In this document: positions 10,243 to 54,966 of the stretch, piece after piece
Position numbering within the stretch: position 1 is the first letter of the stretch
How the letters are laid out: each line of letters opens with the position of its first letter
Assembly (NCBI GenBank): GCA_015501055.1
Contig: JADNYV010000003.1
Location: 558,001 to 622,000 of the forward strand
DNA from: Mucidula mucida
Taxonomy: Eukaryota; Basidiomycota; Agaricomycetes; Agaricales; Physalacriaceae
DNA length: 64,000 nucleotides
Direction of reading: 5' to 3'
Program-made: the position numbers and the translations under genes
The notes under the pieces: generated by a model
Told to the model about the DNA's origin: nothing
What the model saw: only the letters and a program-made list of their open reading frames with translations
Database searches by the model: none

Positions 10243-11600
10243 TACTTTGGCAACTCTGGGCTGTCAATGAGCATCGCCGTCATCCTCGCATTTCTATCCC
10301 CGGGAATTTCAGTTTCCTCCGCAACCTTGCGTATGGAAGCAACTTCGTCCTTGCTGAGTGTGATAGCGGCGGCGCCAAGATTCTCTTCCAGATACTACGC
10401 GCAGGAATGAGCGATCTCGACATTGGATGTGACAAAGGGTCTCAACCTTAACCTTTCTCGTCCCCGGAATGACAATAAATTCGGGCCCTTGTGCCAGAAT
10501 CCAGGCGAGCGTTACCTGTGCCGCCGTCGCGCTGTGGTTGTCAGCGATCTTCTTCAGGTGGGAAACAACGTCGAGGATTTTAGGAAAGTTCGCGGCAGAG
10601 AACCTGTTTGGCCATCAGAACGAGAACAAGCTAAAAAGGACGAGTGATACTTCGGGATGGTGTGCCTAAAGTCCTTCTCAGCGAAGTCGGCGGGCGATTT
10701 CTGCAGGATAAACGTAGATAAGGAATCCACGGCGCACAGAGCAGTGGACGTACGTATTGTCCCGTGAGTAAACCTCGTCCAAGCGGAGAGTACGCGACGA
10801 CCGTGACGCCAAGCTCCCTGGCGGTCTCGAGCAAAGCAATTTTGGGATCCTCAATGTCAAGGACAAAGGGAGAGTATTCCATCTGGAGAGCAGCGATTGG
10901 ATGAACTGCGTGGGCACGGCGAAGAGCCTTAGCAGAACACTCCGAAAGGCCCAAATACTTGACTTTCCCTTCCCTATTGATACACATACATTCGTGAGAG
11001 ATTATAGGATTCTTCAAAGCTGTACGCACTTGACAAGTTCGGCCATTGCACCGACGGTTATCTACCCATCGGTTCAGCGGGAATGACTGAGATATTAGGA
11101 AAGTACAAGCAACCTCTATGGGCGTATTGGGATCTACTCTAGGTGTAACATGTCATTGGACAAAAAACGTAAGAACGACGAGTGCTTCCCACCTGTGTTG
11201 ATACAACAAATCAATGTAGTCGGTACCAAATCTTTCGAGAGATTTGGCGACTTGCTCCCTGACGAAAGCGGGGTCTCCACGCACTCCTTGGGCGCTGATT
11301 CCGAACTTGGTGCCCAGGAAGATGTCGCTTCGCTTCCCACTGTGCTTGAACCACTTGCCGATGAGTTCCTCTGAGTCTCCATAGATGTGCGCGGTATCCC
11401 AGAACCTACAACCCTTCGCATGGGCCGCGTCCAAAACCTGACAAGATCTATTTCGGGCAAAGTGCTTCAAAACAACAACACACCTTGAATCGTTCTTCGT
11501 CGGAGTCGGCAGCCCCGTAGAAGCCGCCTGATATACCCATCGCTCCGTATCCAATCTCAGAGACGAGAGCTTGACCGATTTTCCTGGTAGGGATAGACAT
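10243..11600 (-). CDS. Aldo-keto reductase (cluster)
   Basis: NADPH-dependent oxidoreductase of the AKR superfamily, aryl-alcohol-dehydrogenase/AKR13-like. The start MSIPTRKIG gives the usual beta-strand opening. Next come the catalytic Asp and Tyr in [11 protein letters not shown], Lys in FLGTKFG and His in DLLYQHRVD, so the tetrad is complete. Further blocks are [47 protein letters not shown] and the cofactor-binding VIPGTRK. All exons splice in frame (about eight exons), with about 340 residues expected. It lies at the left edge of the cluster, divergent from the GMC oxidoreductase. A role in reducing an aldehyde or ketone around benzoate supply or late tailoring is possible, but nothing in the sequence proves it. 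Confidence 0.85.
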
Positions 11601-12303
11601 TGTGGATTATGGTGGAGGGTGAGTAAGGAGGTTGGTGCTATGGCTACTCGTCGCTCGAGCTCAATTCATCGATAGCGTCGCGTGACACTGACATGCACGT
11701 CCAAACTCGTCAATTACGGAGATATTCTTGGAGTACGTTATGAAATGGTCTGCGACTGGGAGAATGACCGTCGGGATTAGGAACCCAGACCTCCAAATTG
11801 ACGTCGGAGCAGATCTAGGGGAGGCCCAGAGTTTCAGAGTATTTCCCCTTGGACAAAACAAAACTCACAGATGCGTGCAAAGAAGGCAAAGGGGGGGGGG
11901 TCGCAGTTCCGAGGCCGCAGTCCCCCAAAACCCGAGTAGTTTAGGCGAAGGAAAGTTCCTTGGGCACCGTGCACATCACAGATCGACGTGATCTGACAAC
12001 GATTAATTGTAGCTCCATGGAGGCAATCGCAGGCTATCGTTCTCCGATTTGGATCTCGGCGCCGGCCGTCAGTCCGCCGCCAGTAAATCTGGGAACTGGT
12101 GTCACACCGTCCGGCAGCCGTGTGGGCGCTCGCGGTCACCTTGACTTGTCGTTTGAGCCTGAAACCTAGGTCCAGCGCTTTGGCTCTAGATCTTGGTTTG
12201 TCGGGTGTAATAGGCTTGACAGTATCCTCCGAATGGCGCTTGAAACATTTAAATCCGTCGCTCACTTTGCATCTGCAACCACCTTCGCCTCGTCCTCGAA
12301 GAT
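11601..12303. promoter_or_regulatory. Divergent promoter, aldo-keto reductase / GMC oxidoreductase
   Basis: About 700 bp without a credible exon; the open frames in it lack coding character. It contains a run of ten G at 11891-11900 and a GGTCACCTTGAC at 12134-12145. The latter resembles, imperfectly, the GGTCACGTCAC element found in other cluster promoters. Confidence 0.45.
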
Positions 12304-14871
12304 ATGGGATCCTCACATTCTATCATCTCGGATCCTCACCGTTTCGCAACACCCATAACATCGGACGAGGATGTTATTAGGGTGCAGGGAAACCCCTTCA
12401 AAAGCTATGACTACGTCATCGTAGGAGGAGGTTTGTGCAGCTTGGCAACTTCTTGACACGTTGGATTTACGCCTTCAAGGAACCGCTGGCTGCGTTTTAG
12501 CGTCACGACTTTCGGAGGACCGCAGCGTCAACGTATTGCTTATTGAGGCTGGGAAGAGGTTCGTGTCCCATCACACAGCAGGATCATTCGCGTCTCAATG
12601 TAGCATCGTTTGAAGCAATCAGGGCGTACGAAATGCTATCATTCCCCTTGCATTTCCCCTGATGATGAAGAGCGAGTACGACTGGAACTATGAACAGTGT
12701 GAGCTTGAATCCCATGAGCTATCTTGAACGTGAGATTGACGATCAACTGCTCTAGTGGGATGTCGACTCTTGGTGGCCGTACTAGTTATTGGCCCCGCGG
12801 ACGACTTCTTGGTGGAACGAGGTGAGCTGCGCGGTATAGATTGGGGTTTCCTCTCCTCATCACAGTGAACTACAGCTCTATCAATGGCTCAATGTATCAC
12901 CGTTGCGCGCCGGAAGGTACATGCCCCGACAATGTTACTTCTTATTTTCACTGACTCCACTGCTTTAGACTTTTCTGCCTGGGTGCAGGAAGGCGCCAAA
13001 GGATGGGATTATGAGACCATGAAGCCGTCAGCCGTTCTTCTTCGACGCGCCACGTCCTGCCTAAAACTTATTCATCCAGTTATTTCCGCAAGGCCGAGAG
13101 TTATTCCCCTCATTCCGACTATCCCAACATAGACCCCGCGCTTCATGGCACGGATGGTCCGGCCGCGACTACTCATGGTGTCATTGCGGTAAGCTTGCTT
13201 TAACTTTGGCTAGACACGAGTGCCTTGCTGACAATCTTGTTACAGCCCATCACGAGGGATATCCTGCGTTCCAGCGTGAATGTTGGTATACCTCATGTTC
13301 AGTGAGCGTAGTTTTTTGTAATGTTGACCACAGCATGCTCATCACGCGTCTCAGTGACTTCAACACGGATGCTGGACCAACTGGAGTCGGTCTGTTTGTT
13401 CGTAACGTAACCAAGAACGGCAATCGCGTCTCTGCTGCCACGGGATACCTACCTCCCTCAGTCCTAGCTCGTCCCAATCTGACTGTCGCAGTGGAATGTA
13501 TGGTGGAGAAGGTCGTAATGACTTCAAATGACAAGGTGCCTCGTGCGACGGGCCTCATCTTCTCTACCTCCAGGGCGGACAACGTTTCTACGTTCCCGCT
13601 TCCAAGGAAGTGATCATCTCAGCTGGAATTATCGGAACGCCTCAAATCCTAATGCTTTCCGGAATTGGGCCAGCAGGGGACTTGGAAAAGCTGGAGATTC
13701 CGGTTGTACGTGACCTTCCGGTCGGTGAATATCTTCAGGATGTGAGTTCTTGACTGAACAATTTCGATTAATGGAGAATTCAACTGGCCTATGTAGCACT
13801 TCTCGCCTGGTCCTATGTTGATTCGAGCCAAGCGTGGCACCTGGGATCATCTTCTTCGGCCTCTCGGTGCTTTATGGGCCTATGTAGTCTGGCTGTTCAC
13901 TGGCAAAGGCCCTCTTTCGTCCTTGAGTGTGCAAGTGGCCTGCTTTGTTCGTTCTGATGATATGAGGTCCGTCGATGCCCATGCATTTCCTTTTTTGTAA
14001 CCAATTTGACACGTCCATTAGCTTGCCCATGCACGACGGAGCAAAGAAATACCCAGCGTTGGACCTTTGCTCAGGGCCTACCGCTCCAGATATTGAACTA
14101 TTCTTCGCACCCTTCCTAACCCCTCCACTTGGCCAGAAGAAACCTTGGCCTTTCCCTGGACTGACGGCTGTGAGTTCTATTACTTTGTTTTTGTGGACTC
14201 CTAATTAATGTCGTGCTTTGCATAGGGTATCCTCCTCTTAAAGCCAGCAAGTTATGGTACAGTCAAGCTCGTGAGCCGAAACGTCTGGGACTATCCCAAA
14301 ATCGATCCCAAGTATGTCTCAACATTCCACGACGCGCTTGGATGCTCATATCATGTAGTTACGTTGGCGAGAGTAGCGACATGGCACTCTGCATCATGGC
14401 CATCAGGCTGATGATGCGCATTGCACGCGCCAAGCCTTTCGCAGACTCCCTCGATCTTCCCAAGGACTCCACCGACAAAGCCTCTTTGTTCTGGCCAACG
14501 GATTGCAATCCCGACACGGTGCGTCCAAAGATCACGTGGTCGCGATGCGAAGAGAACTGATATAATTAAAGGTCTCCGACGATGATATTGAAGCTTGGAC
14601 CAGACTACATGGCCAGTCTACAGGCCATCCGGTACGCGTGTCATTGCCATTACCGTAACGGTCAATATCTCATGTGCTATTACAGACGTCAAGTGCGAGA
14701 ATGGGCAGTTCGCCGAGCAACAGTGTCGTAGATAGTCGATGCAAGGTGCATGGCGTGGAAGGGTTGAGGGTTTGTGATGCCAGCGTGTTTCCGACACAGG
14801 TGTCGGGACATCCGGCTGCCGTCATCGTCGCTGTCGCAGAGCGGTTGGCAGACATCATCAAAGGTTTCTGA
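12304..14871 (+). CDS. GMC (FAD-dependent) oxidoreductase (cluster)
   Basis: Glucose-methanol-choline family flavoenzyme, aryl-alcohol-oxidase-like, oxidising an alcohol with O2 or another acceptor. The FAD motif starts at YDYVIVGGG, is interrupted by an intron and continues GTAGC. It is followed by [33 protein letters not shown] and the GMC signature region [22 protein letters not shown]. Signature 2 ([21 protein letters not shown]) is present, and so are the C-terminal catalytic histidines in GHPTSSARMG and [14 protein letters not shown]. About 13 exons. At 13573-13575 a G run is one base short of keeping the frame; a 38-nt intron could bridge it but would delete the conserved RATG segment. 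Cluster member by position. Confidence 0.84.
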
Positions 14872-16549: not shown

Positions 16550-18378
16550 CTAACCAAGAGTCTTCTCAACGAGATCTAGAGCTTTCTTCTGCTCATCTTC
16601 AGGACGCCAAGTCCAGGCCCATTCCATCTCCGCCTGCATACGCTTCCCAAGCGTATCCAAGTCGCGGCGGCAACCTCATCATGCAGAGCGCAATCTACTC
16701 CGGTCGCCCGCGAACTCTCTAAAACGTGTCGAGAGAATGGAACACGGATCTCTGAGTAGATCTCGAGGGCTTTGGTCACGTTCTCCCTGGTGATGGACGG
16801 GTGCGAGAGGATCGTCGAGAGAATGTAAGCATCCTACAGAGGCGCGTAGATGAGCATTCTTTTGGGGGCAGAGACAAAAGGAAAAGAGTTACCTCGATCG
16901 CTTGGCCTGCCCCGGCTCCTTGGAAGTTAGTCATAGCGTGCTAAAGTAATGGTTCTTATCAGGTAACAGAACTTCAGGATGGAGAAGCACACGAACCGCC
17001 TAAAAGTCAGTGTCAGACAACGAAATACTCTCGAGAATTCATCAAAATGCTCACTGCATCTCCCAGGAGCACGACGCGGGACGCATTGAAAAATGGCAAC
17101 CCGGTGACGGTACAAATGGCCCATCGGCTGACAACGGGATCAACGCACTGAAAGTACGAATATGAGTTAACAAAAATCCTATAAGAAATTATGCTCCCAC
17201 CTTGAGGATAGCCTGTACATCTGGTTCCCAGCCGGGATACAATGAGGCAAGATGCTCAGAGCTGACATCCGTCACCCATGGTTCGGGGTAGTCGTCTCCC
17301 TCACGGGTGTAATCGCACTTGTAAATGCCAATGTTGACAACCTTGCTATTTTCCGACTGTATAGGATAGGACATAATGTGCTGCATTGAACCATGATTGA
17401 ATAGTGTGAGGGAGAGACGGGAGAAAGAATTCTGACCTTTTCTTTGCCCAGGAACTACGATAGCACATTTCAGTCATCAGAATACGATTTACTATCATGA
17501 TGATGAAAAACCGACCTGGGTGGGAGACTGGAAAGCGTGATGGTTCGGCGCGAACTCGCGCAGCTTGTCCGCCGGGATGACTGTGCGGAATACCTCTACG
17601 CCGCTGAAGCGTGCCTTGATATGGGAGCGCAACTTGGTGGCTTCAGCAGATCGACCCTCCTTCTCTGCTTGTTCCGCTGCCGCGGTGTACATCGTGGCGC
17701 GTACGGCGGATTTGATTCCATCGGCCCCAATGAGTATATCACACGTGGCCGTCGTTCCGTCCTGGAAGTGTAGCTCAATTGGCTCCGATTGGTTAGATGG
17801 CTCGGTGTAGCTAACCAAACGCTTCGACGTGAACGTTTTGGTGCGAGACGGGAGCTCTTTCAAAAGCGCTGCGTGGAAATGACTGCGGCGGAAGCGCGTG
17901 TAACCGGCTAAGATAGGACGTCATAATGAGATGGGTTCATACGCGGTGAAGAGTAGACATACCTAGGCCCATGCACATGAAGATGTCTTCGCCAACGGCT
18001 TGATCAGACTTGCGATAGAGAACCGTCGGTACTTGAGAACCAACATCAGCGCCTTGTTCAGCAACTCGGAACGTAACTGACCCATCTCGTCGCGTGGAAT
18101 CTGATCCTTGGGCAAGAGTGGTACCAGGTATTGTTGCAGTCCAAGCAACTTGAGGACCGTCCATGGCCTCCATGGTATGCCGATCGCGACGCCGATCTCT
18201 CCGAACTTGGAGGCTGCTTCGTACACGACGACTTCGAGGTTTTCAGACTTGGACAAGGCGAGAGCCGCGATGACGCCTCCCACACCACCACCGCTGAGTG
18301 AGACTCGGATTAGGATTATACACGTCGATGAACGGAATGTACACACGCGATTGCAATTCTAAGTTTTGGAGAGGCCAT
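16550..18378 (-). CDS. str9: FAD-dependent monooxygenase, Str9-like (cluster)
   Basis: Class A flavoprotein hydroxylase of the salicylate-hydroxylase type. It begins MASPKLRIAIA, then after an intron the dinucleotide motif GGGVGGVIAALAL and VVVYEAA. The DG motif is ILIGADGIKSAVR, and the third FAD motif RVVLLGDAAHAM..GAGAGQAIED is present. The C-terminus is EMEWAWTWRPEDEQ. About 440 residues. In strobilurin clusters the homologous oxygenase performs the oxidative rearrangement of prestrobilurin A; the context here (PKS, PAL, two methyltransferases) supports the same role. It is divergent from methyltransferase A across 659 bp. Oddities: the GDAAHAM motif needs a 3-nt exon at 16997-16999, and one base is missing in a G/C run at 16674-16675 before the last 35 codons. 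Confidence 0.84.
16997..16999 (-). other. Candidate 3-nt microexon in the FAD monooxygenase
   Basis: On the minus strand the triplet GCG is flanked by ..TTTTAG before it and GTTCGT after it. Using it adds exactly the second Ala of the conserved GDAAHAM motif. Skipping it joins GDA to HAM directly and keeps the frame. Confidence 0.5.
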
Positions 18379-18851
18379 TGTCGGTACTTGGAGGACGTAT
18401 GTCGAATCTTCGAGGAAGACGAAAACAAGTGTTTGAGTTTTGTGAGCCTTATGTACGACTGATTTGGCAGCTCGTATGACTGATTTGACTTTACTTGACA
18501 CTTTCCCCCTGCTTTTCCCCGTTTCCCTATTTGAATTGATGATGATACACTAACTAGTAACGACGAGACACCGTTGTCTATAACTAAGGCCCAGACGCCG
18601 TCATCCAAGCTTGGGTCATCCAGCTATGGTAGTGCGTCAACCTGCGTGAACGCTACGCGAGTCCTTCCATTCTCAGCGGGGTATTTCTCAGCGTCCTCGC
18701 GTAACGGATTATTCTTAGTCGCTAATCACCAAGTCTTATTGGAAATAATTACTCGCCGACGGAGACTTGCTCGGAGACAGGGCCGCTGCCCCGTTACTTA
18801 TCTCCATTGACCGCGAATCGCATCGGTCGCCAATCCCAGTGGATTTTCGGT

Positions 18852-18862
18852 GGTCACGTCAC
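18852..18862 (+). promoter_or_regulatory. GGTCACGTCAC element, copy 1
   Basis: Eleven bases identical to the reverse complement of 18951-18961. A one-mismatch copy lies in the CoA ligase/PAL promoter. The ACGTCA core resembles bZIP/CRE-type sites, but the binding factor is unknown. Confidence 0.4.
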
Positions 18863-18950
18863 AGTAGATCGGGCCATCCAAATCGGTCGAGATAGAGACC
18901 AGAGCTCGCGGCCGGGATCTCCGAGCTATTCAAATAGGTCGCTCCGGATG

Positions 18951-18961: not shown

Positions 18962-18989
18962 CGAGACTTATGAACGATGTCAACGATGG

Positions 18990-19037: not shown

Positions 19038-20239
19038 ATGGCTGCAGCTGACGTCCAGACTCCCTATGTCCTAGTGGTAGGTGGATGTCCTTTTGCTCAT
19101 GGTGTATCACTCATGAAATCCCTACAGGCCAATGAAGCTGAATGGGCCAGGTACGATTTCTACCATCCCTGTCGATCTATTCGTGTCATTGAAGCGTGCA
19201 CTTAGGCTTGATGCTATGCACAATGGAATCGACAAGTTCTTGGGTGGCAAGCTATCGCCCGCAGACTTAGGGAAACCTCAAAAGATCCTCGAAATCGGGT
19301 ACGAAGTCTTTCCGCGATTCTCCTCGGATCGTCCTCGCTGACTTTTGTGCAGCGCTGGTTCAGGCGCATGGTGAGCCTAAATTCGAGTTACCGCGCTTGC
19401 AATTGATTCGTTGCTTCGTAGGGCCATTCAAGCCGCTAAGGCCTACCCTGATGCCGACGTCCTGGCCGTCGACATGAACCCGCTTCCTGCTAGGTAGGTT
19501 CCGTACGAACCATGCAGGTGAAGCCCGTGACGAATTGATACACTTCCAGGCCCCTGCCTCCCAATGTTCGCTACCAACAGCTCAATGTACTAGAGCCCTT
19601 CCCGTTTCCAGCGGAGAGCTTTGATGTCATTCACATCCGACTGGTTCTCTGCCATGTGAGACTGTCTGGACAATCTTCTATGCCAACCCCGCTGACTTGA
19701 GCTGATCTATTTCAGCTCCCGGACGGGCATTCGGTCCTTTCTCGCATCATCGATCTTGTGTCGCCAGGCGGCTGGCTTCTGGTCGATGATATCGACTGGT
19801 CCGAGGCCTTCCAAGGTTTGGACAAGGCTCCAGGAATTAAGCTCGGCCTCTCAGCTTTGGTGAAATCTATGGAATCGGAAGCCGGCGATCCTCACTATGG
19901 CAAGACGCTCAAATCGTATCTTGAGGCCTCCAGCAAGCTCAGTGAGGTTCACGTACGAGAGGTTGATCTGCCCATCAATCCCATCCCCGAAGGTATGTGC
20001 CCCCAACGAGGCGCTTTCAAACGTGTTGCTTATGTTTAGCAGAGCCGGCCTTGGCGGGGCTCAGTCAGATGATGAGGAAGGCCCTTGTTGGTGCTCTGGG
20101 CGCTGCTACGGTCAGTCCTACTACGGTCGGACTAACGAAGGAGGTGCAGCAAGGATTCTTAGAAGAGATGGGCCGTGACGACATGGAGTGGCAGTATTCG
20201 TGCCAACTGTACTTCGCATGGGTGAAGAAGCGCGCCTAA
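19038..20239 (+). CDS. SAM-dependent methyltransferase A (cluster O-methyltransferase)
   Basis: Class I Rossmann methyltransferase. Eight exons splice cleanly, giving roughly 285 residues. Motif I is ILEIGAGSGAWAIQAA, the acidic end of strand 2 is VLAVDMNP, motif II/III is FDVIHIRLVLCHLPDG, and the post-motif is LVSPGGWLLVDDIDW. The C-terminus is VQQGFLEEMG..WVKKRA. In strobilurin biosynthesis two O-methyltransferases methylate the carboxyl and the enol oxygen of the rearranged intermediate; this and the paralogue at 31736-32955 are the natural candidates. All seven intron positions and phases match that paralogue, so the two arose by duplication. Which of the two reactions it catalyses cannot be told. 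Confidence 0.86.
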
Positions 20240-23200: not shown

Positions 23201-23278
23201 AAGATCTTTCTTAGCGAGGGCATTATGAACTCTTTACGAGGTAGACGAATGTTTCCTAACTTTGGCAGTACGACTTCT
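20240..23278. other. About 3 kb without a recognisable gene
   Basis: The longest gene-free stretch inside the cluster. Frames of up to 150 codons (for example minus 21953-22411 and 22470-22739) show no domain or intron partner. Only short repeats were found: a (GGT)8 tract at 23038-23061 and an 11-bp tandem duplication CATTGTACGGT at 22041-22062. No transposon ends were recognised. Confidence 0.45.
23038..23061. repeat. (GGT)8 microsatellite
   Basis: Eight perfect GGT units directly upstream of a TTTAAA. It is not in a coding frame I can support. Confidence 0.9.
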
Positions 23279-24045
23279 TCACTGAATCTTAGCTACAGTT
23301 TCGATCTGCGCAGACTTGATGCGCGAACGCATATCTATCCAAAACGGAAATCCGAAAATGAAGGTGCCAAGAACATATCCAGCCTGCACAGTTGTCAGAC
23401 ATTTTGAAGGAATGGGTGCAATCTCGACGTACACCTGTCGTGAAGTTCCCCGCGTGTTTGCGCGCAAGGTTGAGCGTGTAAAGGGCTTGCAGGCCGTGTA
23501 CCGCAAACGTGAATGCCCATATACCTTTTAGGGTTGTACCTTCCACGTAGGTATTCGGGACGAAGGTAAGGTAGAGAAGGCCACAGACGGTGCCGAGTGT
23601 CGTCTTGAACACAAGAGTAGGGAAGCGGAAGGTGCTGACCACAGGGGATTTGATCTGTAAGAAGACGTCGATTTCATGCAGTCTCGAAGGTAGGAAGATT
23701 GCCGTACCAGTCCAAGGCCTTCTAGCGCTCGCGCCTTCATTTCAAGGAGGCGCGGCTTAACGTCTTCATAGCCAGCAAATGGGCGATCCAGCACAACCCG
23801 GACCTGCTTCTTGCTCCCGTTCTTGAACGTACAAGTGAGTGTAATGCTCTAATGATGCAGTTGAGAACAGAGCAACGGAGGATTCGCCAGACACAAGTAA
23901 CCTTGGAGTCGATTGCAGACACTTCGGCGGCGGTGATGGTCTCTGCGACCTTGCCATACCATTTGGCGTATGCGCGTAGAGTCTCCGGCTGCTTCGACAG
24001 ATACGCCTTGAGTTCTCCAGATTTGTTTGCAACGGGGTCGGCCAT
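23279..24045 (-). CDS. DUF2470-domain membrane protein
   Basis: From ATG 24045: MADPVANKSGELKAYLSKQ, then a DUF2470 core (heme-iron-utilisation/FMN-binding-like fold) with TCTFKNGSKKQVRVVLD and the conserved FAGYEDVKPRLLEMKARA. The second half has several hydrophobic segments (TTLGTVCGLLYLTFV, GIWAFTFAVHGLQALYTL, YVLGTFIFGFPFWIDMR), so it is an integral membrane protein. Four exons fit in frame and give about 220 residues. This arrangement is a common uncharacterised fungal family of unknown function. It sits inside the cluster but has no obvious part in strobilurin chemistry; I take it as a bystander. Confidence 0.75.
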
Positions 24046-25131
24046 AGTGGTGTAGGTGACTGGCTCTTGCAGGAAAGGTCCGTGTGACAGAAATAGTCAA
24101 GCCGTCCCCAGATAGATTGCCGGGCGGCGGAAATACATATTGTGGCCAAATGTATGATCCCTTTTCACCGATTGATGTCGGAGCGCCTGCTCAAAGTCCT
24201 GACCTACACGACGGTGAAGCGGAGAGCCGCTTCACATCTCTCCGACTCCAAGGCATCTTGCTTACGCGCGTTGTCTAGCTCAGTTTTCACACCGACGCAA
24301 CGCCGCTGGGCTTCGCAGGCAGAGTACGATCACCTTTGGTAGCAATGACAATAGAACGCGATTGAAACGCGTGGCGTGACCTCCTGTCTTTTCTCTTAGT
24401 CGCCTTAGCACCGTCGCAGCGCTGCATAGACTTGTCCACTTCCCGACGGTCCCAGTAAATCGGTTGTTGAACACGGATCGAAGATTGAGTACCTTCTCAA
24501 AAAGATCCGGAGGACAGAAGACTTCCGATGTGGAACTAAAGTCCTCAGAAATGATAACCAGTCAAACCACCATGAGGACTTTGCGTAAGGAGAATGGATA
24601 TTGAATCTAGTGACGCTTGAGTAATAATAAGTCAATGTTCACATTGATACGATGTCGACGGCGCAGAATGTTCACAATTGACGGCAGAATAATCAATCAT
24701 TCTTCGATTGATGATCATGTACTTGATATCAGGCAGAGACGAAGCTGACGAAGTCTCTACTTAACACCTCCATGGAGGTCTACGTTATGCGATCCGGTGG
24801 GCGGCGCGCTGGCCGCTGCCTTGCGACATTCAGGATCGATGATATAGACGGCAGCACATTTGGGCTCTGGAACTATCTGGAGTTCGTGTACATGAGGACT
24901 AGGCCAAGTTTCTCTTGTCCCTCGATTGCATACAGTTGCAAATTCTGAACCGCGTTACTGGAGCTGCCAGCAAGTCCGCCGCTTTTGTTGACCATTCATC
25001 ACAAAATGGGTCTAAGTATGTCGAACAGTACATTGATATGGAGTTCAAATGAATAGCGAATCTACGCTGACTAGCTAAGGAGTTGTATAGTATACACGAG
25101 TAGAGTACCAATACCAGTAACAGTCGACCAT
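24046..25131. other. About 1.1 kb non-coding
   Basis: Between the start of the DUF2470 gene and the stop of the CoA ligase. No exon, repeat or RNA gene was recognised on either strand. Confidence 0.45.
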
Positions 25132-39900: not shown

Positions 39901-42900
39901 AGGTACTCATCAAGATATCGTCTCTTTCGGACACGGAGGGTGGGCTACGGGGTATTGTTGGAACAGTCGCGCGCAGCGGATCCTCGCAGTTCAAAGTAGG
40001 GGCTCGTGTAGTGTCCGTCGCGCCGTCTGCTCTGTCCAACTTCGTCCTCGTCCACGAGGGCCAGATCTCCCAAATTTCCGAGACCGCTGACGAGCGAGCA
40101 TCTGCGAATGTCGCCTTGCTGTTGGTTTTCGCAGCTCTTGGTCTTCGGCTTGACTCCAGGCCACTGGAGAGCTTACAGGAAATCCAAGTCGTCGTCCTTA
40201 ACACCGGCACGCTTGCCTCTTCCGTAGCGCATGTCTTGGAGCATCTAGGCGTCAGACCAGTTTTGGTTTCCCCTTCCCTTCCTTTGATCCTTCCTCGCCT
40301 ATCCCCCGGGGATGTTATTCTGTGCGGACTGTCTGCCGCCTCTGCTCGTACTATCCCTCGCATCGCTGGAGTTTCTGTCTTTAACTGGGAGGACGCAGAC
40401 CAAGGCGCCCTTACCGCCGTGACCCAAAACCCTTGGTTAGTCGGTACCACAATCAACGTGCACTTGACCAGCGCCGTTCAAAAGGTCAACGTGGACGACA
40501 ACTTGCTCACGCCCGAGCAATTGCTTCCGTCGAGTTTCGATGTCTCGCAAACTCTCGCTTTGGCGGAGGACAAGTTCTATCTCATTCTGGGTGGAATTGG
40601 CTCTTTGGGACTCCAGGTTGCTATCTGGATGTATCGAGTGAGTAATATCTTTTCTTGCGCTCTTCAATGCTAATGAGAGTTATATGGCAATAGAAAGGTG
40701 CACGTCATATCGCTCTTACCTCCCGAACAGGTGTTAGTCGCCTTGCCGGAGCCCAGAACAGAGCCATGCGTGGCGCCGTCGACTACCTCAAGAGCCTTCC
40801 TGATCTTGACCTTCGCCTGGAGGCGTGCGACGCCTCGTCGGTGGAATCTCTTACCAAGTTGATCAACTCGCTGGACCATCCCCTTGCAGGTTGCCTGTTC
40901 ACAGCAGCCGTCCTATCCGACCGATTGTTCTTAAAGCAAGATGCCGAAAGCTTCCCCATCCCTTTCAAGCCGAAGACTGACGCGTATTTCGCCCTGGAGA
41001 AGGTCGTCGCCATCGAGAAACTTGACTTCTTGCTCGCTGTCTCCTCTGTGGCCGGTTTTGGCGCCGCCGGGCAAACGAACTACGCTAGGTAAGCTTTCTC
41101 TCTCTACCTGGCCTTCTGTTCATGCACTTATCGCTGCGATAAGCGCGAACACGGGTATCGAGTATCTAACGGGACGCTATCCCAACGCCTGGTCCTTCGT
41201 GGCCCCTGGAATCGCAGATTCCAACGTTGGTTTTGACTTATTCACTTCAGCAAATTCCCATATAGAGATGTGGGAATCATCGACCATGAACAGCTACGGT
41301 ATGTGAACCTCCTCTGCGTTGATCGTGAATATTCCATTGAACACCTTGACCTGCAGAGATCTGTCTCTGCCTCGAGGACGGACTTTTGCGCATGGCCAAT
41401 GAACGCATCTCCATCTACGTGCCCAACCTCAACTGGGATGCCATCTACAATTCCGTCAGCGAGTCTCCTCTTTACAATCACCTCGTCAAGTTGGACGCCG
41501 CACAAGAGGATCTAGAGGTCGAAGACCCGTACCAGGTTCTCCAGGAGATTGTTCTCAAATTTGTCGATGCTTCTGAAGACGAGTTTGAGAAAAATGTTCC
41601 CCTCACGTCGTACGGGTAAGTCGCTCTCTGTGTTGCTTTCAATTAGTTCATTGTGCTCAATGTGTCACTCTCCAGTCTTGACTCTCTTTCTGCTGCCAGA
41701 ATGTCAACCGCCCTGAAGCCGTATCTTGCCATTACGCAGATCCAGCTGTTGGGTGACCTCAGTCTTGATGATCTTGTCGCAAAGATGGGAGACACGAAGC
41801 GCACAGCGGTGGACGAACACGTAGTCAGCACGACGGAACGGCCGTTCGCATGGGACGCACTGCATCAACCTGGGCAGACGATCCTGAAGCTGATCATTGG
41901 AAGTGGGACGCCTCTTATTATTCTTCACGGTGGCGCAGGCGACATCGCTGCTTTCAGAGCTATTCAAGAGCAATTTACGACTCCACTCTGGGCTATCCAG
42001 CCGACTCCGGAGGCTCCCCTTGACACTGTTGACACTCTCGCTCAATTCTACTTTGAGAAGATCAAAGAAGCGCGACCTGCCGGTCCCTATCGTATTGCTG
42101 GATTCTCTGCCTCAAGTATGGTTACGCTTCGACTTGCTCAACTCTTAGAAGCCAACGAAGACGAGATTGTGCAGCTGAGTTTCGTCGACCACTTCCCGAT
42201 GCTTTTCACCTCCCCTGTTCACGGCTTCACGGAAGATTTCAAGACCTTCGAGGAACTGGCCATATATGGGAGACAAGCTAGTGTGGCCATGGTCGCAGAC
42301 TGTTGCAGTCGAGACTCAGCACCCGCTCGCCGCCTATATGGTGAGAATCTGGTAGCGGCCTCCAAAGGGCTTCCCTCTGCCGCAAACGCACTCGAATCCT
42401 GGGAGTGGATCAAGAAGACCACGGCCATGAATCTGAAGCAGGTGGTTGAGTTGGGAGGCGGATGGGCTGTCTGGGCTTCTACCGACGCAAAGACCCGTGA
42501 GGCGACTGCGAGACGCAGCATGCTCGAGGAGATCGCCAAAGTCCGGACCCCTATGACCGTTCTGGTCGCGAATTGGGGATTACGCTCACTCCTTTCATCG
42601 GATTGGAACGACTTGGGTATTTCTCTGAGTCAACGGGAGTGTCAAACCTCGTACTATGAGTCGGGTCACTTCGACATCTTTGAGAAGTCAGACTTCTCGC
42701 GTAGTCTCGAGCTCGATTGGGTCGAGCCACACCCGGAACACAAGCTTGCTTCGATGGTCCACAACCCCGCCATGAAAGATCTCAGGGTGATGTTCAAAAT
42801 CTTGGACACGATGGCGCTGCGGGTCATGGCGGACACCGTTGGTCAACATCCTCGTGTGGGATCGGAGGTACGTGCCGAGCCTCGTTATGAGGGAAGATAT

Positions 42901-43887
42901 TGACTCGCCAACAGATCAGTCGCCAGCGGTTGTACGACGCAACAGAAGAGTTTGTTCGCACACAATCCAAAGCACATGGACGGAAGAGGAATACGAACGC
43001 TCCAAGGCGCTCTTCCCGCTGTACTTCGAGACGACAGATCGTATTGCAAAGGTACACCCGTCCGTGATGGAATCGCCAGCGGTATGTGCAATGATTTATG
43101 TTATCAATCTTTGCAAGTTATTCATAGTACACTAGGCCGCTGTTGGAGCGTTGTATTCCGACGACATGATCGACGGCTTCTATCGCGAAAACAGGGTGTT
43201 CACTAGTATGAACCAAGAGGCTGCGAAGACCTTCAAGTCACTCGTCTCGTCTCCTGACTTCGGAAAGCAGCGTCCTATCAGGGTATTGGAAGTCGGTGCA
43301 GGTCTGCATCCTGTCTTTGTATTTTCGATGATCCTGTTGACAGTGTATCTTTAGGTGTCGGTGGATTGACGAAGTTCCTCGTCGAGGCCTTGTGCGACAT
43401 GCCCAACGCTGATGTTGAATATACAGTCACGGATCTTTCTTACTCCTTAGCCAGCAGCTTGGCGCAATCCTTCTCCTACAAGAACATGGTCGCGAAGATG
43501 TATGACCTCTCGAAGACGCCAAGCGAACAGGGAATTCAGTTGGGCCACTACGACATAATAACCGGCTTGAACGTTATCCACGCCGTGCCGAACCTCGACG
43601 CCACCCTTCATGACCTCAATTCCCTGCTCGCGCCTGGTGGCCGCATCCTCATCGTCGATACCGATGGCACAGCCCGGAGCTCAAGTCCACCTCGCCCAGG
43701 AGCGATTTGGAACGACTTTATCTGGGGCTGCTTCCAAGGGTGGTTCGGGTACACCGATGATCGCATGCATTGTACTATCGATGAGAAAGAGTGGCGGAAG
43801 CGTCTCACAGCGACAGGGTACTCCAATATCCAGGTCTGCCACGAAGACGCAGGAACTTGTATCTTGTTCGAAGCTGAGAAAGCTTAA
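33939..43887 (+). CDS. stpks1: Highly reducing polyketide synthase with C-terminal hydrolase and methyltransferase
   Basis: Iterative type I PKS of roughly 2,800 residues over more than 20 exons. KS: DTACSSS with Cys at 34628-34630, ECHATGT (His 35250) and GNIGHTE. AT: GHSAGE, Ser 36386. [12 protein letters not shown] (His 37363) and LDSCIHG (Asp 38031). CMeT at about 38.8-39.4 kb has the altered motif EIGDATG. An ER-like region at 39.8-40.4 kb lacks an NADPH motif. [36 protein letters not shown], Ser 41683. After the ACP come an alpha/beta-hydrolase (GFSASS, Ser 42106; GHFDIF) and a methyltransferase (VLEVGAGVGG). This C-terminal pair is the hallmark of the strobilurin PKS, which extends benzoyl-CoA to the prestrobilurin A tetraketide. 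One base seems missing at about 42969-42973 between hydrolase and methyltransferase. Confidence 0.93.
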
Positions 43888-44833
43888 AATCGCGTCGGTT
43901 GCGGTATTGCTGTCATGTATCATGTATTTCTCCTCCATCTACGCACATCATATCTATTCGCTACACCAATGTTTCAATGTAGAGTTCTGCTTAATTGTAC
44001 CAATATCATGATGCATTCACTGTAACACCCGGAAGCATATATTTAAATGCGAATCCTGGCAATCTTTCCTGATTGTGTGTCTTTTGAGCTGCAAGATGAG
44101 AGACTTGGCAATATAACTGACCACAGGTACTCGATCCGTTGAAAGCGACTGGCGGTAATGACGCCACACCTACATCGTACAAAAGAGCGGAAGCCGGACC
44201 GTGACGGTCCTTGATCGTCTCGCCGCTAGCAGATCTTGTAGTCGACTGTCTTCACTGGACTTTCTCGATGAAATGCAGCTAGCTGTGGTAAGAATTGAGT
44301 AAGACTGCAGTAAGGTCGTGTCCAGCGCATGTTTCGCCCTCTTTGCTCCGCACACGACTTTGTTCAACAGCTGCTAGTGTGTTCCAACGTTCTCTTGAGG
44401 GGCTCCTCTTCTGTGAGTTCTGTTCCGCGCCTAGCGCTCTAGTCCTGGCGAAGTCGATTGAATTGTGTCTGCTACTTACGACATCGTAGCATGATGTTGA
44501 AGGAAGAAGCATTCAGGATGTATCTTTGGTGTGTTGACTCTAACCAAACGCTTTGTTGATGTTAAGTAGTGTATGCAACTACTTCAACAGCTAATATAGT
44601 CGAACGTGAGTTCGGCATAATCGGTCAGATTCGCGGCAGTGAGACGAGGTAGAATGACTAGAATGGCAGCAATTAGTTTGACTGGTTAATTAATCGGGAG
44701 TGCCTTTGGTTGCGCACTACAGATGCCGACTAAATCGGACCGATGACCGATATTTAATCTTACCAAGCGTGTAGCTTTCCTCCTACGCTCGTCGCTCGCC
44801 ATCTCGTCCTCTTTCACGCCATCTGTCGTAATA
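43888..44833. promoter_or_regulatory. Intergenic region, PKS 3' end and ABC transporter promoter
   Basis: 945 bp with no exon. The noteworthy element is the perfect 15-bp palindrome at 44196-44210. Confidence 0.5.
44196..44210. promoter_or_regulatory. 15-bp palindrome GGACCGTGACGGTCC, candidate regulator site
   Basis: Two perfect 7-base arms (GGACCGT/ACGGTCC) around a central G, about 620 bp upstream of the ABC transporter start. The shape fits a dimeric binding site. Half-sites recur before the PKS. Confidence 0.42.
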
Positions 44834-47800
44834 ATGGCTGCCTGCCGCGACATTGAAGGCTGGGCCGTGGTTTCCGGCCAACGTCCATTTGATCTCACGC
44901 CATGCTTCGAGGAGGGCATCATCCTATCGACGCTTTACACGGCGCTTCTTGTGTTGTCGGTGTTGCGCTGTTTCACAACATTCCTCAAGGAAAAACAAAA
45001 TTTATGCAACACAAGTCGATGGTTATTGCGCGCAAAGCTTGTACGTACATTTCAAGCTCATTGCGGCAGTACTCACGCAAGAATAGGTCTTGCTCACCTT
45101 GGCGTTCTGCGTGGGCATCGCCAATCTTTGTGTCGCCATTTACCTCCACAAGTTGTCCCGGTGCTCCAGTCTTATATTCTTGAACCGGTCTCTATCGCTG
45201 GTGCCATATTCCTCACATACTATAACCACACGCGAACACGTAGCTCGTCGACGCTCCTCCTGATATATTGGCCAGTGTACCTCTTGGGCCTGGCCATATG
45301 GGTTCGAACTACGTTGTCTAGCGGCTCCCATATTTCGCGTGTTACCCTTGTCTTGAAAACCACAACCAGTGGTTTAGGCCTCTTGGCATTTTTCTTGGAG
45401 TGTATAGGTCCTGAGCAGGTGCCAGGGAAAGAAAACAATGAGAACGCACCATCCGAGAGCCCTATCATTACCGCTAACATTTTCAGTATCTGGGTATGTG
45501 CGTCTTGGGAGCTTTTCTATTCGGTTAACCAACATAATTTTCAGTTTTTTGAGTGGATGACGCCACTTATGAAGAAGGGTGCCTCACAGTTTATCACCGA
45601 GAACGATTTGCCGTCTCTACGACCTGCAGATGATTCCATACGCTTGAGCGGATGTTTAGAACGCGCACTTAAGAAGCAGTTCGTCACAAACCCATTGTCA
45701 TTTAAAGGGGCTGACACACTTGTAGTGCGCTGTGGAAAGCCCTCTTCGTCGCTTATGGCCGTCCATACGGTATTGCCGCTGGCATGAAGCTTGTGTCAGA
45801 CTCACTTGCGTTTCTACAGCCTCAACTTCTGCGATGGCTTCTCTCGTACATTTCGCACTATCAGATGGATAACGCTTCATCGTCTCGTCGCCATCCACTG
45901 GAAGGTTTCTCTATAGCGGTTCTCATGTTCATCGCGTCCATCGCGCAGACCGTAATCCTCAATCAGTATTTCCAGAGGACGTTTGAAACCGGGTATGAGA
46001 TTCCTTTGGCCAAAAGACGCACCTAATTCCAGCTAGAATGCGAGTCCGCGCAGGCTTAGTATCAGTAATCTACAACAAGTCGCTGGTGCTTTCCAATGAT
46101 GAGCGTACCCGCGCGTCTGGCGACATCGTCAACCTCATGTCCGTGGACGCGACGAGGCTCCAAGACTTTTGCACATATGCTCTCATCGCGATTTCTGGTC
46201 CCTTCCAGGTTTGTCGCATCGGACTTTGGGACTTGACCTCGCATCTTATTCCCACCTTTTCAGATCACCTTGGCTTTCGTTTCTTTGTACAACCTCTTGG
46301 GATGGGCTGCGTTCGTAGGTGTAGCTATCATGGTCATCTCGGTTCCTCTGAACACATGTGCGTACTCTTTTAGACGCGTTAATCCCCAATCTGAAATTTG
46401 GTAGTCATCGCCCGAATTTTGAAGCGGATGCAAGAGCAACAGATGAAGAATCGTGACAAGAGGACGCGACTCATGAGTGAGCTACTGTCCAACATGAAAA
46501 GGTTTTTACTTTCTTACCTGAATGGCTCCGAGGATTTATTGCCGTATAGTATCAAGCTGTATGCGTGGGAGTATGCATTCATGCGCAAGATTCTTACTGT
46601 GCGCAATGACATGGAAGTGAAAATGCTGCGGAAGATTGGTATCGCTACTGTGAGTAGCACGTTGTTCTGACATTCTGTTACTTGACAGGTCGTGCTAGTC
46701 CTTGAACATGATGTTGTGGAGCGGTATCCCTCTACTCGTCGCCTTCAGTTCTCTCGCAGTGGCCGCAGTGACTTCTTCACAGCCTATAACCTCAGATATC
46801 ATTTTCCCTGCGATTTCTCTTTTCATGTTGTTACAATTTCCTTTAGCTATGGTTCGTCTCATTCGTACATGAAATGCTTCTATCCGGTTAACAAGTGAAC
46901 AGTTCAGCCAAGTGACCTCAAACATAATTGAAGCTATCGTTTCCGTCAAGCGACTAGCAGAGTTTTTGGGAGCCGACGAGTTGCAGGTTGACAATCGGAA
47001 AGTGATCGAACGGCCCAATCTACAACCAGGCGACGAGGTACCTACTTATCTTTCATTCAATCCGACTTTCTCTGATGCACTCTAGGTTCTTTCCATCAAG
47101 AATGCCGATTTCGTCTGGTCAAAGGACGCTGTTGAGCCTACGCTAGAAGATATCAATCTATCAGTAAAGAAAGGGCAGTTGCTCGGTGTCCTGGGCAAAG
47201 TTGGTTGTGGCAAGGCGAGTCCATTGACCTGCCGACCGCTTTGAACATGACGTAATTCGGCTTGACAGACAAGTTTACTTTCGGCCGTAATCGGAGATAT
47301 GACTAGGAAGGAAGGGGAACTTGTGGTCAATGGTACCATTGCATACGCGCCTCAAAACCCTTGGATTCTTTCTGCAACTGTCAGAGAGAATATATTATTT
47401 TCTCATGTTTACGAAGAGACCTTTTACAACTTGGTGATCGAAGGTCTGTCGAAGGGCGTTACCTATGCACGTTTTTTTTTTTTTGCTGAAGACATCTTCA
47501 GCCTGTGCCCTCGGACCGGACCTTGCGCTGTTAGCACAAGGGGATTTGACGGAAGTAGGAGAAAAAGGCATCACTGTACGTCCGTAATCGACATATGCTG
47601 GAGAAATTTATCGTGTTCGCCAGCTTTCTGGTGGGCAACGTGCCCGCATCGCCCTTGCGAGAGCTGTCTATGCTCGGGCCGACCTGTAAAGTAATCCCTC
47701 TGGCTTCGACTCACGCTGACACCCCATGTAGTGTCTTGTTAGACGACGTCTTAGCAGCAGTCGATAGCCATGTAGCTCGCCATATTTTCAGTGCGCTTCT

Positions 47801-50558
47801 ATTGCTTGCTTCTAGATAACACTTCTGACTGCCGTCAGATAATGTAATCGGGCCTCAAGGCATTCTCGCTACTAAGGCTCGAATCCTCGTCACGAATAGC
47901 ATTGCTTTCATCAAAGACTTTGACCAAGTCGCATTCATTCGGCGTGGAATAATCCTTGAGCAGGGCTCATACATGTCTCTCATGGATAACACTGAAGGAG
48001 AAATCTCAAAACTTGTGTGAGTTTGGAAGCTATTTACGTTGGATTTTTGCTCAACTTCGCGGTAGCCAAGGACACGGAACCAGCACCAACGTTTCGGGAT
48101 CGGTCACGCCCATGATACCGGATGCCAACAGGAATGGGAAAGGAGTTGTCACTCCAGAGTTGAAAGACGACGAAATAGATGCGAAGTTCAGTATCAACCT
48201 TTCAGAGAAGTTGCGTCGATCGAGTTTTTCGAAGGCCGTGCTTGCACCTCCTGCTCCCGTGAGAGCTTCGGAGTCGACGGGTCTCTCCAAGGAGCATATG
48301 GAACAAGGATCCGTGAAGAGGCGTGTTTATTCTGAATATGTCAAGGCCGCATCCAAGACCGGATTCCTACTCTACCTCCTTGCCATCGTTCTGCAACAGG
48401 CTGCATCAGTCTTGAGTAACCTCGTGTTACGAAGCTGGGGCGAACATAATAGTCAGATGGGTGATAACTCTAACATGTGGCGGTACATGCTTGTATACGG
48501 GCTGTCCTCGTTGTCATCCATTTTGTTCAGTGGTATGGCGGCCATTCTGATCTGGGTGTTGTGCTCCATCCGAAGTGCTAAACAGCTTCACGATTCGGTA
48601 GGTATCTACCTATTCATTCGGAAGCTAATTTTACGGCCTCACAGATGTTGCAATCTTTGATTCATGCCCCACTTAGTTTCTTTGAGCTGACCCCTACTGG
48701 ACGGTGAGATTTAGTCTCTGCCGCCAAATGACTCTTAACTTGATTGAAAACACAGAACGTTGAATCTCTTTTCTCGTGACATATACGTCGTCGATCAAGT
48801 CCTTGCTCGTGTCATTCAAGGCTTTTGTAGGACGTCCGCTACCTGCATCTTCATCGTGATCGTTATTGGTGCCAGTTTCCCTCTCTTCCTGCTCGCCGTT
48901 ATACCCCTTGGTTACTTCTATATGCAAGTTATGAAGTGAGTGCTATCGCATGTGACGTTTAACTTTGACTTAGTACGCCCGCGCAGATACTACCTGGCAA
49001 CGTCCCGAGAACTCAAGCGTTTGGACGCCGTCTCTCGTTCTCCGATCTTCGCATGGTTCTCCGAATCATTAGCCGGCCTGTCTACCATCCGGGCGTTCAA
49101 TCAACAACCTATCTTCATATCTACTATCCAGCGAAGGGTTGACCGCAATCAGATCTGTTACCTTTCCAGTATTTCTGTGAACCGATGGCTTTCCGTGCGC
49201 TTAGAGACTGTGGGAGCGATTGTCATTCTGGTCGTCGCCCTACTTGCTATGGTTGCGCTGATCACTACTGGTGTCGACGCGGGTCTTGTTGGGCTCGTTC
49301 TCTCGTATGCTTTGAATGCGACCTCTTCACTCGTCAGTATCCACCGTCATTCGCTTCAGTCATTGCTGATAGACCTGTCTACAGAATTGGGTAGTCCGAT
49401 CGGCCAGTGAAATTGAGCAGAACATTGTTAGTGTCGAACGTATACTGCATCAAATAGAGGTACCTCACGAAGCTGCCCACGAACTGCCCGAGTCTAAGCC
49501 AGAAGAACCTTGGCCGGCAGAGGGAGCAGTTGAGTTTCGGTAAGGGTGTGTAGTTTTCTCACAAATTTTCATACTGAACTTTGATGCAGGGGTTATTCAA
49601 CGCGATACCGTGAAGGACTGGATCTTGTTTTGAAGGACCTCTCTTTGAATATTGTACGATTTTTATCAACTACATAACACAAGGTCGCCAACCGATTTCA
49701 GAAACCTAGAGAGAAAATCGGTATTTGCGGAAGGACTGGCGCTGGGAAGTCTTCCGTGAGGCTCTTTTCCGTCTCTCGGTTTCAAGATACTGAAGTTTGT
49801 TAGCTCTTACTTGCTCTGTTCCGTATCATAGAACCTGTTGAGGGCACCATCTTCATTGACGGCATTGATCTCACAAAAATTGGTCTTCACGATCGTAAGT
49901 CACGATCGGCGCTACCCCGTCCAAATTTGAACTTTCTTTCAACAGTTCGGTCTTCAATCTCCATTGTGCCCCAGTCGCCAGATCTGTTTGAAGGGACCCT
50001 CCGCGAAAACATTGATCCTTTGGGCGAACACCACGATGCCGATATATGGGTGGCGCTCGGACAAGCGCATTTGAGAGAATACGTCGAGACTCTACCTGAA
50101 GGTCTTGATGCACCGGTCCGCGAAGGAGGGTCTTCGCTTTCTTCCGGTCAGCGGCAGCTTCTTTGTTTCGCCAGAGCCCTCTTGCGCAAGGTAGGTAGTG
50201 TCGGCCTCCATTCTGAACCCTGTTTAACTCGAGGCTCAGTCGAAAGTGCTTGTACTGGATGAGGCTACGTCAGCAGTCGATCTAGACACAGATAGGAATA
50301 TCCAGGATATCATCCGGGGGCCCGCATTTACCGACGTTACTATTTTGACTATCGCGTACGTTTCCGTCTTTCTGGTCTGAGCGTCGTTTTCATTTCTCCG
50401 ACAGACATCGCCTGAATACCATTATCGACTATGACCGTGTTCTTGTCATGGAATCTGGCAAGGTGGCAGAGTTTGACCTACCACAGACCCTATTGGAGAG
50501 AAAGGATTCTATATTCTATTCTCTTGCCAGTGAAGCAGGACTGGCTCCGGAGAAGTAG
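44834..50558 (+). CDS. ABCC-type (MRP) multidrug exporter (cluster)
   Basis: Full-length ABC transporter of the ABCC/MRP class, about 1,400 residues, with an extra N-terminal membrane domain (TMD0), then TMD1-NBD1-TMD2-NBD2. NBD1: Walker [21 protein letters not shown], signature [14 protein letters not shown] and Walker [16 protein letters not shown]2: Walker [27 protein letters not shown], signature [15 protein letters not shown], Walker [14 protein letters not shown] and H-loop TIAHRL. About 25 exons. The intron inside NBD1 Walker A (47215-47268) uses a GC donor. One base seems missing in a C run at 45146-45147 in TMD0. It follows the PKS in the same direction; a role in exporting the antifungal product or protecting the producer is likely but not proven. 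Confidence 0.9.
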
Positions 50559-54400: not shown

Positions 54401-54966
54401 TCTAATCCCAAGCTTAATAGAACGTCCTGCATAAACTAAAGGAGAGAGCTCATGCGGCCATTTCGAAAGCCCGGGGACACGTCCTCCCAAATCACCGCAC
54501 ACCACATGTCAAAACAGAGGCGAGCGATGAATTGGCAGGACTCGGTGGAATGACTAGGCTTGTCTCTCGCCGGACATCGTCTTTGCCCTCGTCGCCGTCG
54601 TCGAACGCAGGCTCTAGTCCAGCCTCGCAGCCAGCATCTCCTCCACTGAGTCAGAACTCGAACTACCAGGCGATACATGACCCAGCCGCTCAGTGGTCGT
54701 ATACCCCCATGCAACAAGATTACGACTACCCTGTATATTCCCCAACAGATGGCTCCATGCCATACAATGTCCCTCAAAGCCAGCACGGGATGACTTTGGA
54801 TGTCATGCCCACTTACTACGGATACGGCAGCAACGGTCACAATGTTCGAGTTGGCTTCGGCCAATTTAGCATGCAGCATTCTTTACCGAGCGACTTTTCT
54901 GCGCCACCGGATCATGATCTCAACCTGTCTTGGCAGAACTTCATGTCGCAGTACAGGCCAATATGA
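51490..54966 (+). CDS. Zn2Cys6 transcription factor with fungal-specific middle domain
   Basis: Likely pathway regulator. The binuclear zinc cluster is assembled from four short exons: CSECRRLKLKCSRVFPC, then SNCVKKGCGPIC. It is followed by GSLTTGKGNRF and a coiled coil typical of mushroom Zn2Cys6 proteins. The middle homology region runs from ICDLYYRH-like sequence through FLETIYRPVYG, LALLFMVLAMGTLMD, YYQLGRAAL, LIMCHFMFWN and RRRCLLWEIFVYDSW. The C-terminus is Ser/Pro/Gln/Tyr-rich. All exons examined join in frame. It lies directly downstream of the ABC transporter on the same strand, which suggests control of the cluster; its targets are not known. Zn2Cys6 proteins usually bind CGG triplets, which occur in the CoA ligase/PAL promoter. 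Confidence 0.88.

What the first reader, a model, noticed from the sequence alone, without database searches (positions are those of the whole stretch)
10243..54966. Complete strobilurin-type biosynthetic gene cluster
The sequence shows PAL, CoA ligase, an HR-PKS with the rare hydrolase plus methyltransferase tail, an FAD monooxygenase, two paralogous O-methyltransferases, an ABC exporter and a Zn2Cys6 regulator within 45 kb, interrupted only by a DUF2470 gene. From established knowledge this is the set required for prestrobilurin A and its conversion to strobilurin A. That this strain makes a strobilurin or oudemansin is inference.
Basis: partly seen in the sequence, partly recalled or inferred. 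Interest (0 to 1): 0.9.

Follow-up and report, generated by a model that had tools for sequence, protein, structure and literature searches.

The report
Strobilurin antifungal gene cluster in mushroom
This stretch of a porcelain-mushroom genome carries most of the genes expected to make strobilurin A (mucidin), the natural antifungal behind a major fungicide class, but one known pathway gene was not found beside them and a second copy of two late-step genes lies elsewhere in the genome.

Summary
Deposited Mucidula mucida proteins for the PKS, FAD monooxygenase and PAL lie on a contig of this contig's length, 839,475 bp. M. mucida is a known producer of mucidin = strobilurin A (PMC7828609 passages). 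The PKS has the diagnostic hydrolase plus methyltransferase tail, as do its nearest relatives in Mycena, Hymenopellis and Favolaschia. A GMC oxidoreductase (compare str4) and an aldo-keto reductase lie in the interval too.

"Complete" is not supported: no str8-type non-haem-iron oxygenase and no SDR was found in the window. A second FAD-monooxygenase/methyltransferase pair lies on contig C94.

Added here: the PKS "partial hydrolase plus unknown region" models as one whole thioesterase with a conserved Ser-Asp-His set. The cluster-type PAL and FAD monooxygenase group with Russulales enzymes. One-base frame breaks in PKS, FAD monooxygenase and PAL also occur in housekeeping genes of this assembly, so they are probably assembly errors.

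A variant of a known system. Alignment to the Strobilurus proteins themselves was not possible.

The parts
10243..11600 (-). aldo-keto reductase gene; possible aldehyde-reducing enzyme of the cluster (role inferred)
   Evidence: PF00248 E 3.6e-24 on a gene-finder model; lower end read from DNA
12304..14871 (+). GMC oxidoreductase, counterpart of str4 by family; exon model approximate
   Evidence: PF00732 (N-terminal domain) E 2.6e-29; models
16550..18378 (-). FAD-dependent monooxygenase, counterpart of str9 by family (oxidative rearrangement)
   Evidence: P0121, contig length 839475; FAD_binding_3; DNA read; trees
16645..16663 (-). one-base frame break in the FAD monooxygenase, probably an assembly error
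   Evidence: housekeeping controls
19038..20239 (+). SAM-dependent methyltransferase A (str2/str3-like by family)
   Evidence: Methyltransf_23 E 1.1e-15; 83% to the C94 copy over 230 columns
23279..24045 (-). DUF2470 plus TMEM254 gene, membership in the pathway unknown
   Evidence: on a hand-spliced model; coordinates
25062..27868 (-). acyl-CoA ligase, counterpart of str10 by family (benzoate activation inferred); 5' end uncertain
   Evidence: PF00501, PF13193
28725..31348 (+). phenylalanine ammonia-lyase, counterpart of str11
   Evidence: P0241 96%; PF00221; tree
30343..30385 (+). one-base frame break in PAL, probably an assembly error
31736..32955 (-). SAM-dependent methyltransferase B; ends approximate
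   Evidence: Methyltransf_25 E 8e-9 on a hand-assembled model; 66% to A
33939..43887 (+). highly reducing PKS, deposited model 2797 aa, 304 kDa, 30 exons; KS-AT-DH-(MT)-(ER)-KR-ACP-TE-MT
41854..42723 (+). thioesterase domain of the PKS (model residues 60-349; conserved Ser, Asp, His)
42968..42974 (+). one-base frame break between thioesterase and C-terminal methyltransferase, probably an assembly error
43007..43884 (+). exons holding the C-terminal methyltransferase domain with intact LEVGAGVGG motif
44559..50558 (+). full-length ABC transporter with TMD0; export role inferred; 5' end uncertain
   Evidence: PF00005, PF00664, PF24357
51490..54966 (+). Zn2Cys6 transcription factor; 3' part of the model uncertain
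   Evidence: PF00172, DNA read

Best explanation
The interval is the strobilurin (mucidin) biosynthetic locus of Mucidula mucida, a variant of the Strobilurus str cluster. PAL makes cinnamate; an enzyme not found here converts it to benzoate; the CoA ligase activates benzoate; the HR-PKS extends benzoyl-CoA three times with C-methylation, and its own thioesterase releases prestrobilurin A; the FAD monooxygenase epoxidises and rearranges it; the two methyltransferases add the O-methyl groups; the GMC oxidase turns reduced alcohol back to aldehyde; the ABC protein exports and the Zn2Cys6 protein regulates. Shown here: the genes, families, PKS architecture, relatives and linkage. Taken from the work on Strobilurus: the reaction steps. 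Inferred: substrate identity in this species, release by the thioesterase, export, regulation, and the supply of benzoate from a gene elsewhere.
For: PKS architecture and exon map (304 kDa, 29 introns, serine at 2274; the paper gives 306 kDa, 28 introns and S2240 for StPKS1). Nearest PKSs are in Mycena, Hymenopellis and Favolaschia with the same tail. Contig-length linkage among the seven other species whose full-length PKSs head the list (P0002-P0008): cluster-type PAL listed for 5, on the PKS contig in 3 (M. polygramma, M. crocata, M. sanguinolenta); cluster-type FAD-MO listed for 5, on the PKS contig in 2 (M. sanguinolenta, F. claudopus); in M. galopus PAL and FAD-MO share a contig. No second PKS of this type seen in the genome (17 of 21 candidates scored). 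M. mucida is a documented producer.
Against: No non-haem-iron oxygenase or SDR found in the window. The Strobilurus proteins could not be aligned: none was named among the 120 hits listed in each. In M. crocata, M. galopus and M. olivaceomarginata the FAD-MO is on another contig than the full-length PKS, and in H. radicata PAL and PKS are on different contigs. Frame breaks in three core genes. No expression or metabolite data for this strain.
Confidence: 0.9

Rival explanations
1. A related benzoate-primed polyketide cluster that makes a different product (for example an oudemansin-type or shunt compound) rather than strobilurin A itself.
For: Gene content differs from the Strobilurus cluster: aldo-keto reductase, ABC transporter, Zn2Cys6 and DUF2470 genes present, str8-like and stl2-like genes not found. 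M. mucida also makes oudemansins and strobilurin X.
Against: This is the only PKS of its type seen in the genome and the species makes strobilurin A, so this PKS should serve that product unless another exists in unassembled sequence.
Confidence: 0.12
2. The window locus is decaying: core genes are broken and the working late-step genes are the FAD-MO/methyltransferase pair on contig C94.
For: One-base frame breaks in PKS, FAD-MO and PAL; the C94 FAD-MO shows none.
Against: Breaks of the same size occur in a housekeeping-type PAL, a chaperonin and an HSP70 gene of this assembly (the last two were picked because searches showed abutting pieces). The other PKS introns are 47-60 bases long (exon list). 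No second PKS of this type was seen.
Confidence: 0.06
3. Benzoyl-CoA is made without an oxygenase, by another route from cinnamate, so the locus is complete in itself.
For: No oxygenase found at the locus although PAL and ligase are there. The paper says that the squalestatin pathway forms cinnamoyl-CoA early.
Against: No extra chain-shortening gene was identified in the window either. Many exon-level hits to five non-haem-iron oxygenase families exist elsewhere in the genome.
Confidence: 0.15

Closest known systems
Strobilurin cluster of Strobilurus tenacellus and S. lutea (Nofiani et al. 2018, PMC6158276; text parts 1-4 of 6 read; the body of its Table 1 and the supplement were not seen)
   Same: HR-PKS with post-ACP hydrolase and terminal methyltransferase, PAL, CoA ligase, FAD monooxygenase, GMC oxidoreductase and two methyltransferases within about 45 kb
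   Different: No str8-type oxygenase, stl2-type SDR or str5/str6 hydrolase found in the scans; an ABC transporter, a Zn2Cys6 factor, an aldo-keto reductase and a DUF2470 gene lie in the interval ('transporter' and 'transcription factor' do not occur in the paper's main text); gene order differs from that implied by the published numbering; a second FAD-MO/methyltransferase pair lies on another contig
Basidiomycete polyene HR-PKSs LpaA and PPS1 (PMC7473843, passages)
   Same: HR-PKS with an inactive ER; LpaA is described with a thioesterase behind the ACP
   Different: LpaA's stated architecture ends at the thioesterase, without a terminal methyltransferase; the product is a polyene acid
Thioesterase domain of human fatty acid synthase (PDB 7mhd, 1xkt)
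   Different: About 20% identity over the whole domain; sequence search matches only about the first 100 residues

Membership tests
Strobilurin biosynthetic cluster | HR-PKS with hydrolase and methyltransferase behind the ACP | tested here: met
Strobilurin biosynthetic cluster | Central C-methyltransferase and ER inactive, terminal methyltransferase intact | tested here: inconclusive
   Terminal motif LEVGAGVGG intact. No ER family among the 14 listed for P0001. Central motif reads LEIGDATG, not compared with a solved enzyme.
Strobilurin biosynthetic cluster | PAL (str11) | tested here: met
Strobilurin biosynthetic cluster | Non-haem-iron oxygenase (str8) in the cluster | tested here: not met
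   None in the proteins or in 70 open stretches; no hit of five non-haem-iron families on contig C271. Limits: the Pfam family of Str8 itself is not known to me, 35 of the 95 stretches of 50 aa or more listed for the gaps between 11.6 and 51.5 kb were not scanned, and shorter exons were not scanned with Pfam.
Strobilurin biosynthetic cluster | CoA ligase (str10) | tested here: met
   family level only
Strobilurin biosynthetic cluster | FAD monooxygenase (str9) | tested here: met
   family level, no direct alignment to Str9
Strobilurin biosynthetic cluster | Two SAM methyltransferases (str2, str3) | tested here: met
   family level
Strobilurin biosynthetic cluster | GMC oxidoreductase (str4) | tested here: met
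   family level
Strobilurin biosynthetic cluster | SDR (stl2) | tested here: not met
   No SDR in the proteins or stretches scanned; an aldo-keto reductase is present. The paper's experiment 12, without the SDR, still gave strobilurin A.
Strobilurin biosynthetic cluster | Makes strobilurin | not testable with these tools
   Species-level literature only
Type I thioesterase (alpha/beta hydrolase) | Complete fold with Ser-Asp-His | tested here: met

The most novel reading that the evidence does not exclude
The strobilurin pathway of Agaricales is a mosaic moved between lineages. Its rearranging FAD monooxygenase, and perhaps its PAL, come from a Russulales (Stereum-like) source, were joined with the PKS in Mycena and Mucidula relatives, and in M. 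mucida the late module (FAD-MO plus methyltransferase) exists in two places, so that the pathway runs from more than one locus.
Probability: 0.35. Interest if true: 0.7.

Novelty: new variant of a known kind. Interest (0 to 1): 0.5.

Why it matters
Mucidin was found in M. mucida in the 1960s and proved identical to strobilurin A (PMC7828609 passages), and the listings of my paper searches (three of them capped, open-access library only) showed no title or abstract describing its gene cluster in this species. The locus gives a comparison with the Strobilurus cluster that asks which genes must be clustered, makes the benzoate-supply step and the PKS tail testable, and offers a case for studying how a mitochondrial-inhibitor pathway spread among fungi.

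Tried and rejected
Self-resistance: cytochrome b could not be read, because the assembly gave no PF00033 hit, so producer-type cytochrome b is untested.

Pseudogene reading: the frame breaks first looked like decay of the cluster; the controls made that unlikely. One further suspected break (C260) turned out on reading to be an intron. The control genes on C1 and C160 were chosen because their HMM pieces abutted, so one search gives no rate.

Simple transfer of the whole cluster from Mycena into Mucidula: Mycena cluster-type PALs as one clade without Mucidula/Hymenopellis is not rejected (p 0.636), so direction is open. PKS identity of Mucidula to Hymenopellis (0.83) and to M. polygramma (0.84) is about equal, but gene models and paralogues blur this; for PAL Hymenopellis is clearly the nearest (0.92 against at most 0.85 for Mycena).

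Russulales ancestry: holding all Agaricales PALs together is rejected only at p 0.0175, and Russulales PALs as one clade are not rejected (p 0.613). Holding the cluster-type FAD-MO with the Agaricales is rejected at p 6.8e-6 and Russulales FAD-MOs as one clade at p 0.0169. The PAL groups were named after a first tree; the FAD-MO test was set in the script of its first tree, after the PAL result; the two Russulales tests came after the trees. PAL rows: 51 of 120 hits plus two own paralogues; FAD-MO: 39 of 120 hits. Deep paralogy is not excluded. The best PKS hits outside Mycena and Favolaschia showed no russuloid closeness.

The C94 dioxygenase (about 309.6-311 kb) and SDR (about 272-275 kb) as the missing str8 and stl2: unsupported, because gene models of other kinds lie between them and the FAD-MO copy.

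Full report
What the window is. The window is G000:C271:558001-622000 of a 59.9 Mb, 1047-contig genome. The contig is 839,475 bp long. The top database hits for the PKS, FAD monooxygenase and PAL models are proteins named Mucidula mucida on a contig of exactly that length (P0001, P0121, P0241), and a further one (P0122) is on a 451,075 bp contig, the length of C94. P0001 maps exactly onto 33939-43884 in 30 exons. So the organism is M. mucida (syn. Oudemansiella mucida). That it is strain CBS 558.79 (genome reported in PMC8480192, passages seen) is inference. The review PMC7828609 (passages) says that mucidin, found in the 1960s in M. mucida, is identical to strobilurin A, and lists oudemansins and strobilurin X for the species.

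Gene content. Left to right: aldo-keto reductase (10243-11600 -), GMC oxidoreductase (12304-14871 +), FAD monooxygenase (16550-18378 -), methyltransferase A (19038-20239 +), about 3 kb in which none of the 26 open stretches of 50 aa or more has a Pfam match over the family's cut-off, DUF2470 gene (23279-24045 -), CoA ligase (25062-27868 -), PAL (28725-31348 +), methyltransferase B (31736-32955 -), PKS (33939-43887 +), ABC transporter (about 44559-50558 +), Zn2Cys6 factor (51490-54966 +). Models other than PKS, FAD-MO and PAL come from a home-made gene finder and hand splicing and have uncertain ends.

PKS. Pfam finds KS, AT, DH, KR, a thioesterase start at 2209-2303 and a methyltransferase at 2609-2780. 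The nearest PKSs outside M. mucida are those of M. polygramma, M. crocata, M. galopus, Hymenopellis radicata, M. sanguinolenta, Favolaschia claudopus and M. olivaceomarginata (P0002-P0008, 68-77% by BLAST), all with the C-terminal methyltransferase motif. Of the 55 proteins aligned, 15 show this motif (P0009 with a substitution), 39 have a gap there, among them the Mycena forms P0011-P0018, and P0019 shows two letters of it. In the genome only the window gene matches along its length; the next PKS-like hit (C61, residues 202-620) is 29% identical. The same search found stand-alone hydrolase-like genes on eight other contigs that match residues about 2192-2472 at 29-51%, that is the thioesterase start together with the region behind it or part of it.

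Linkage elsewhere. Contig lengths served as contig identity. M. sanguinolenta has PKS, FAD-MO and PAL on 3,563,225; F. claudopus PKS and FAD-MO on 3,412,355; M. polygramma PKS and PAL on 451,171; M. crocata PKS and PAL on 596,510; M. galopus FAD-MO and PAL on 252,251. Against tight linkage: in M. crocata, M. galopus and M. olivaceomarginata the FAD-MO is on a contig other than the full-length PKS, and in H. radicata PAL and PKS are on different contigs. Hits are representatives of 90% clusters and lists stop at 120, so a species missing from a list is not evidence of absence.

What is missing. The Strobilurus work obtained prestrobilurin A without feeding when PAL, str8, ligase and PKS were expressed together. 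I found no non-haem-iron oxygenase in the window (70 open stretches in all), and none of the genome's hits to PF03171 (15), PF05721 (2), PF14226 (19), PF13640 (7) and PF02668 (26) lies on contig C271. No SDR was seen in the same scans. Hence the set is not complete at this locus, as far as these scans reach.

Second locus. On C94, 282436-284240 holds a FAD-MO copy (81% to the window's over 421 columns) followed by a methyltransferase copy at 284723-285928 (83% to methyltransferase A over 230 columns). The PKS search gave no hit on C94.

Frame breaks. The PKS, FAD-MO and PAL each show a net -1 break against relatives, and the deposited models skip codons around it. The same class of break is seen in the housekeeping-type PAL on C593, a chaperonin on C1 and, twice, an HSP70 gene on C160, while the C449 PAL and the C94 FAD-MO show none. 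I read them as assembly errors.

Ancestry. In the PAL tree (53 rows) the cluster type (Mucidula, Hymenopellis, Mycena) joins Russulales (SH-aLRT 99), while the genome's own C593 PAL sits with Desarmillaria and Guyanagaster; holding all Agaricales PALs together is rejected at p 0.0175, but Russulales PALs as one clade are not rejected. In the FAD-MO tree (39 rows) the cluster type joins Stereum among Russulales (bootstrap 100, SH-aLRT 98); holding it with Agaricales is rejected at p 6.8e-6. Transfer from a russuloid source is the bold reading; deep paralogy with losses remains possible.

Judgement. The locus works like the strobilurin cluster and is best filed as a variant of it, because the clustered oxygenase was looked for and not found. 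The listings of my paper searches (capped at 20 of 54, 15 of 26 and 15 of 31) showed no description of this cluster in M. mucida; most subscription papers are outside that library.

Noticed in passing
G000:C94:282436-285928: Second FAD monooxygenase/methyltransferase pair, paralogous to the pair in the window, on a contig without a hit to the PKS
   Followed up: partly
window 16645-16663, 30343-30385, 42968-42974; L047, L048, L050: One-base frame breaks in cluster genes and in housekeeping genes of the same assembly
   Followed up: yes
P0011-P0018, P0026, P0028: Close relatives of the strobilurin PKS with a gap at the C-terminal methyltransferase motif, mostly in Mycena species, some of which also hold the long form
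   Followed up: no
P0007, P0020-P0024, P0026: Favolaschia claudopus has at least seven PKSs of this kind in the hit list
   Followed up: no
G000 contigs C715, C625, C682, C727, C448, C111, C227, C661: Stand-alone hydrolase-like genes resemble the PKS thioesterase, most of them over its whole length
   Followed up: no
window 20240-23278: About 3 kb without Pfam matches over cut-off in its 26 open stretches of 50 aa or more, between methyltransferase A and the DUF2470 gene
   Followed up: yes
window 55299-57296: Pieces of a cytosine/purine-type permease (PF02133) just right of the regulator
   Followed up: no
G000: No cytochrome b hit, so the mitochondrial genome seems absent from the assembly and target-site self-resistance cannot be read
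   Followed up: partly
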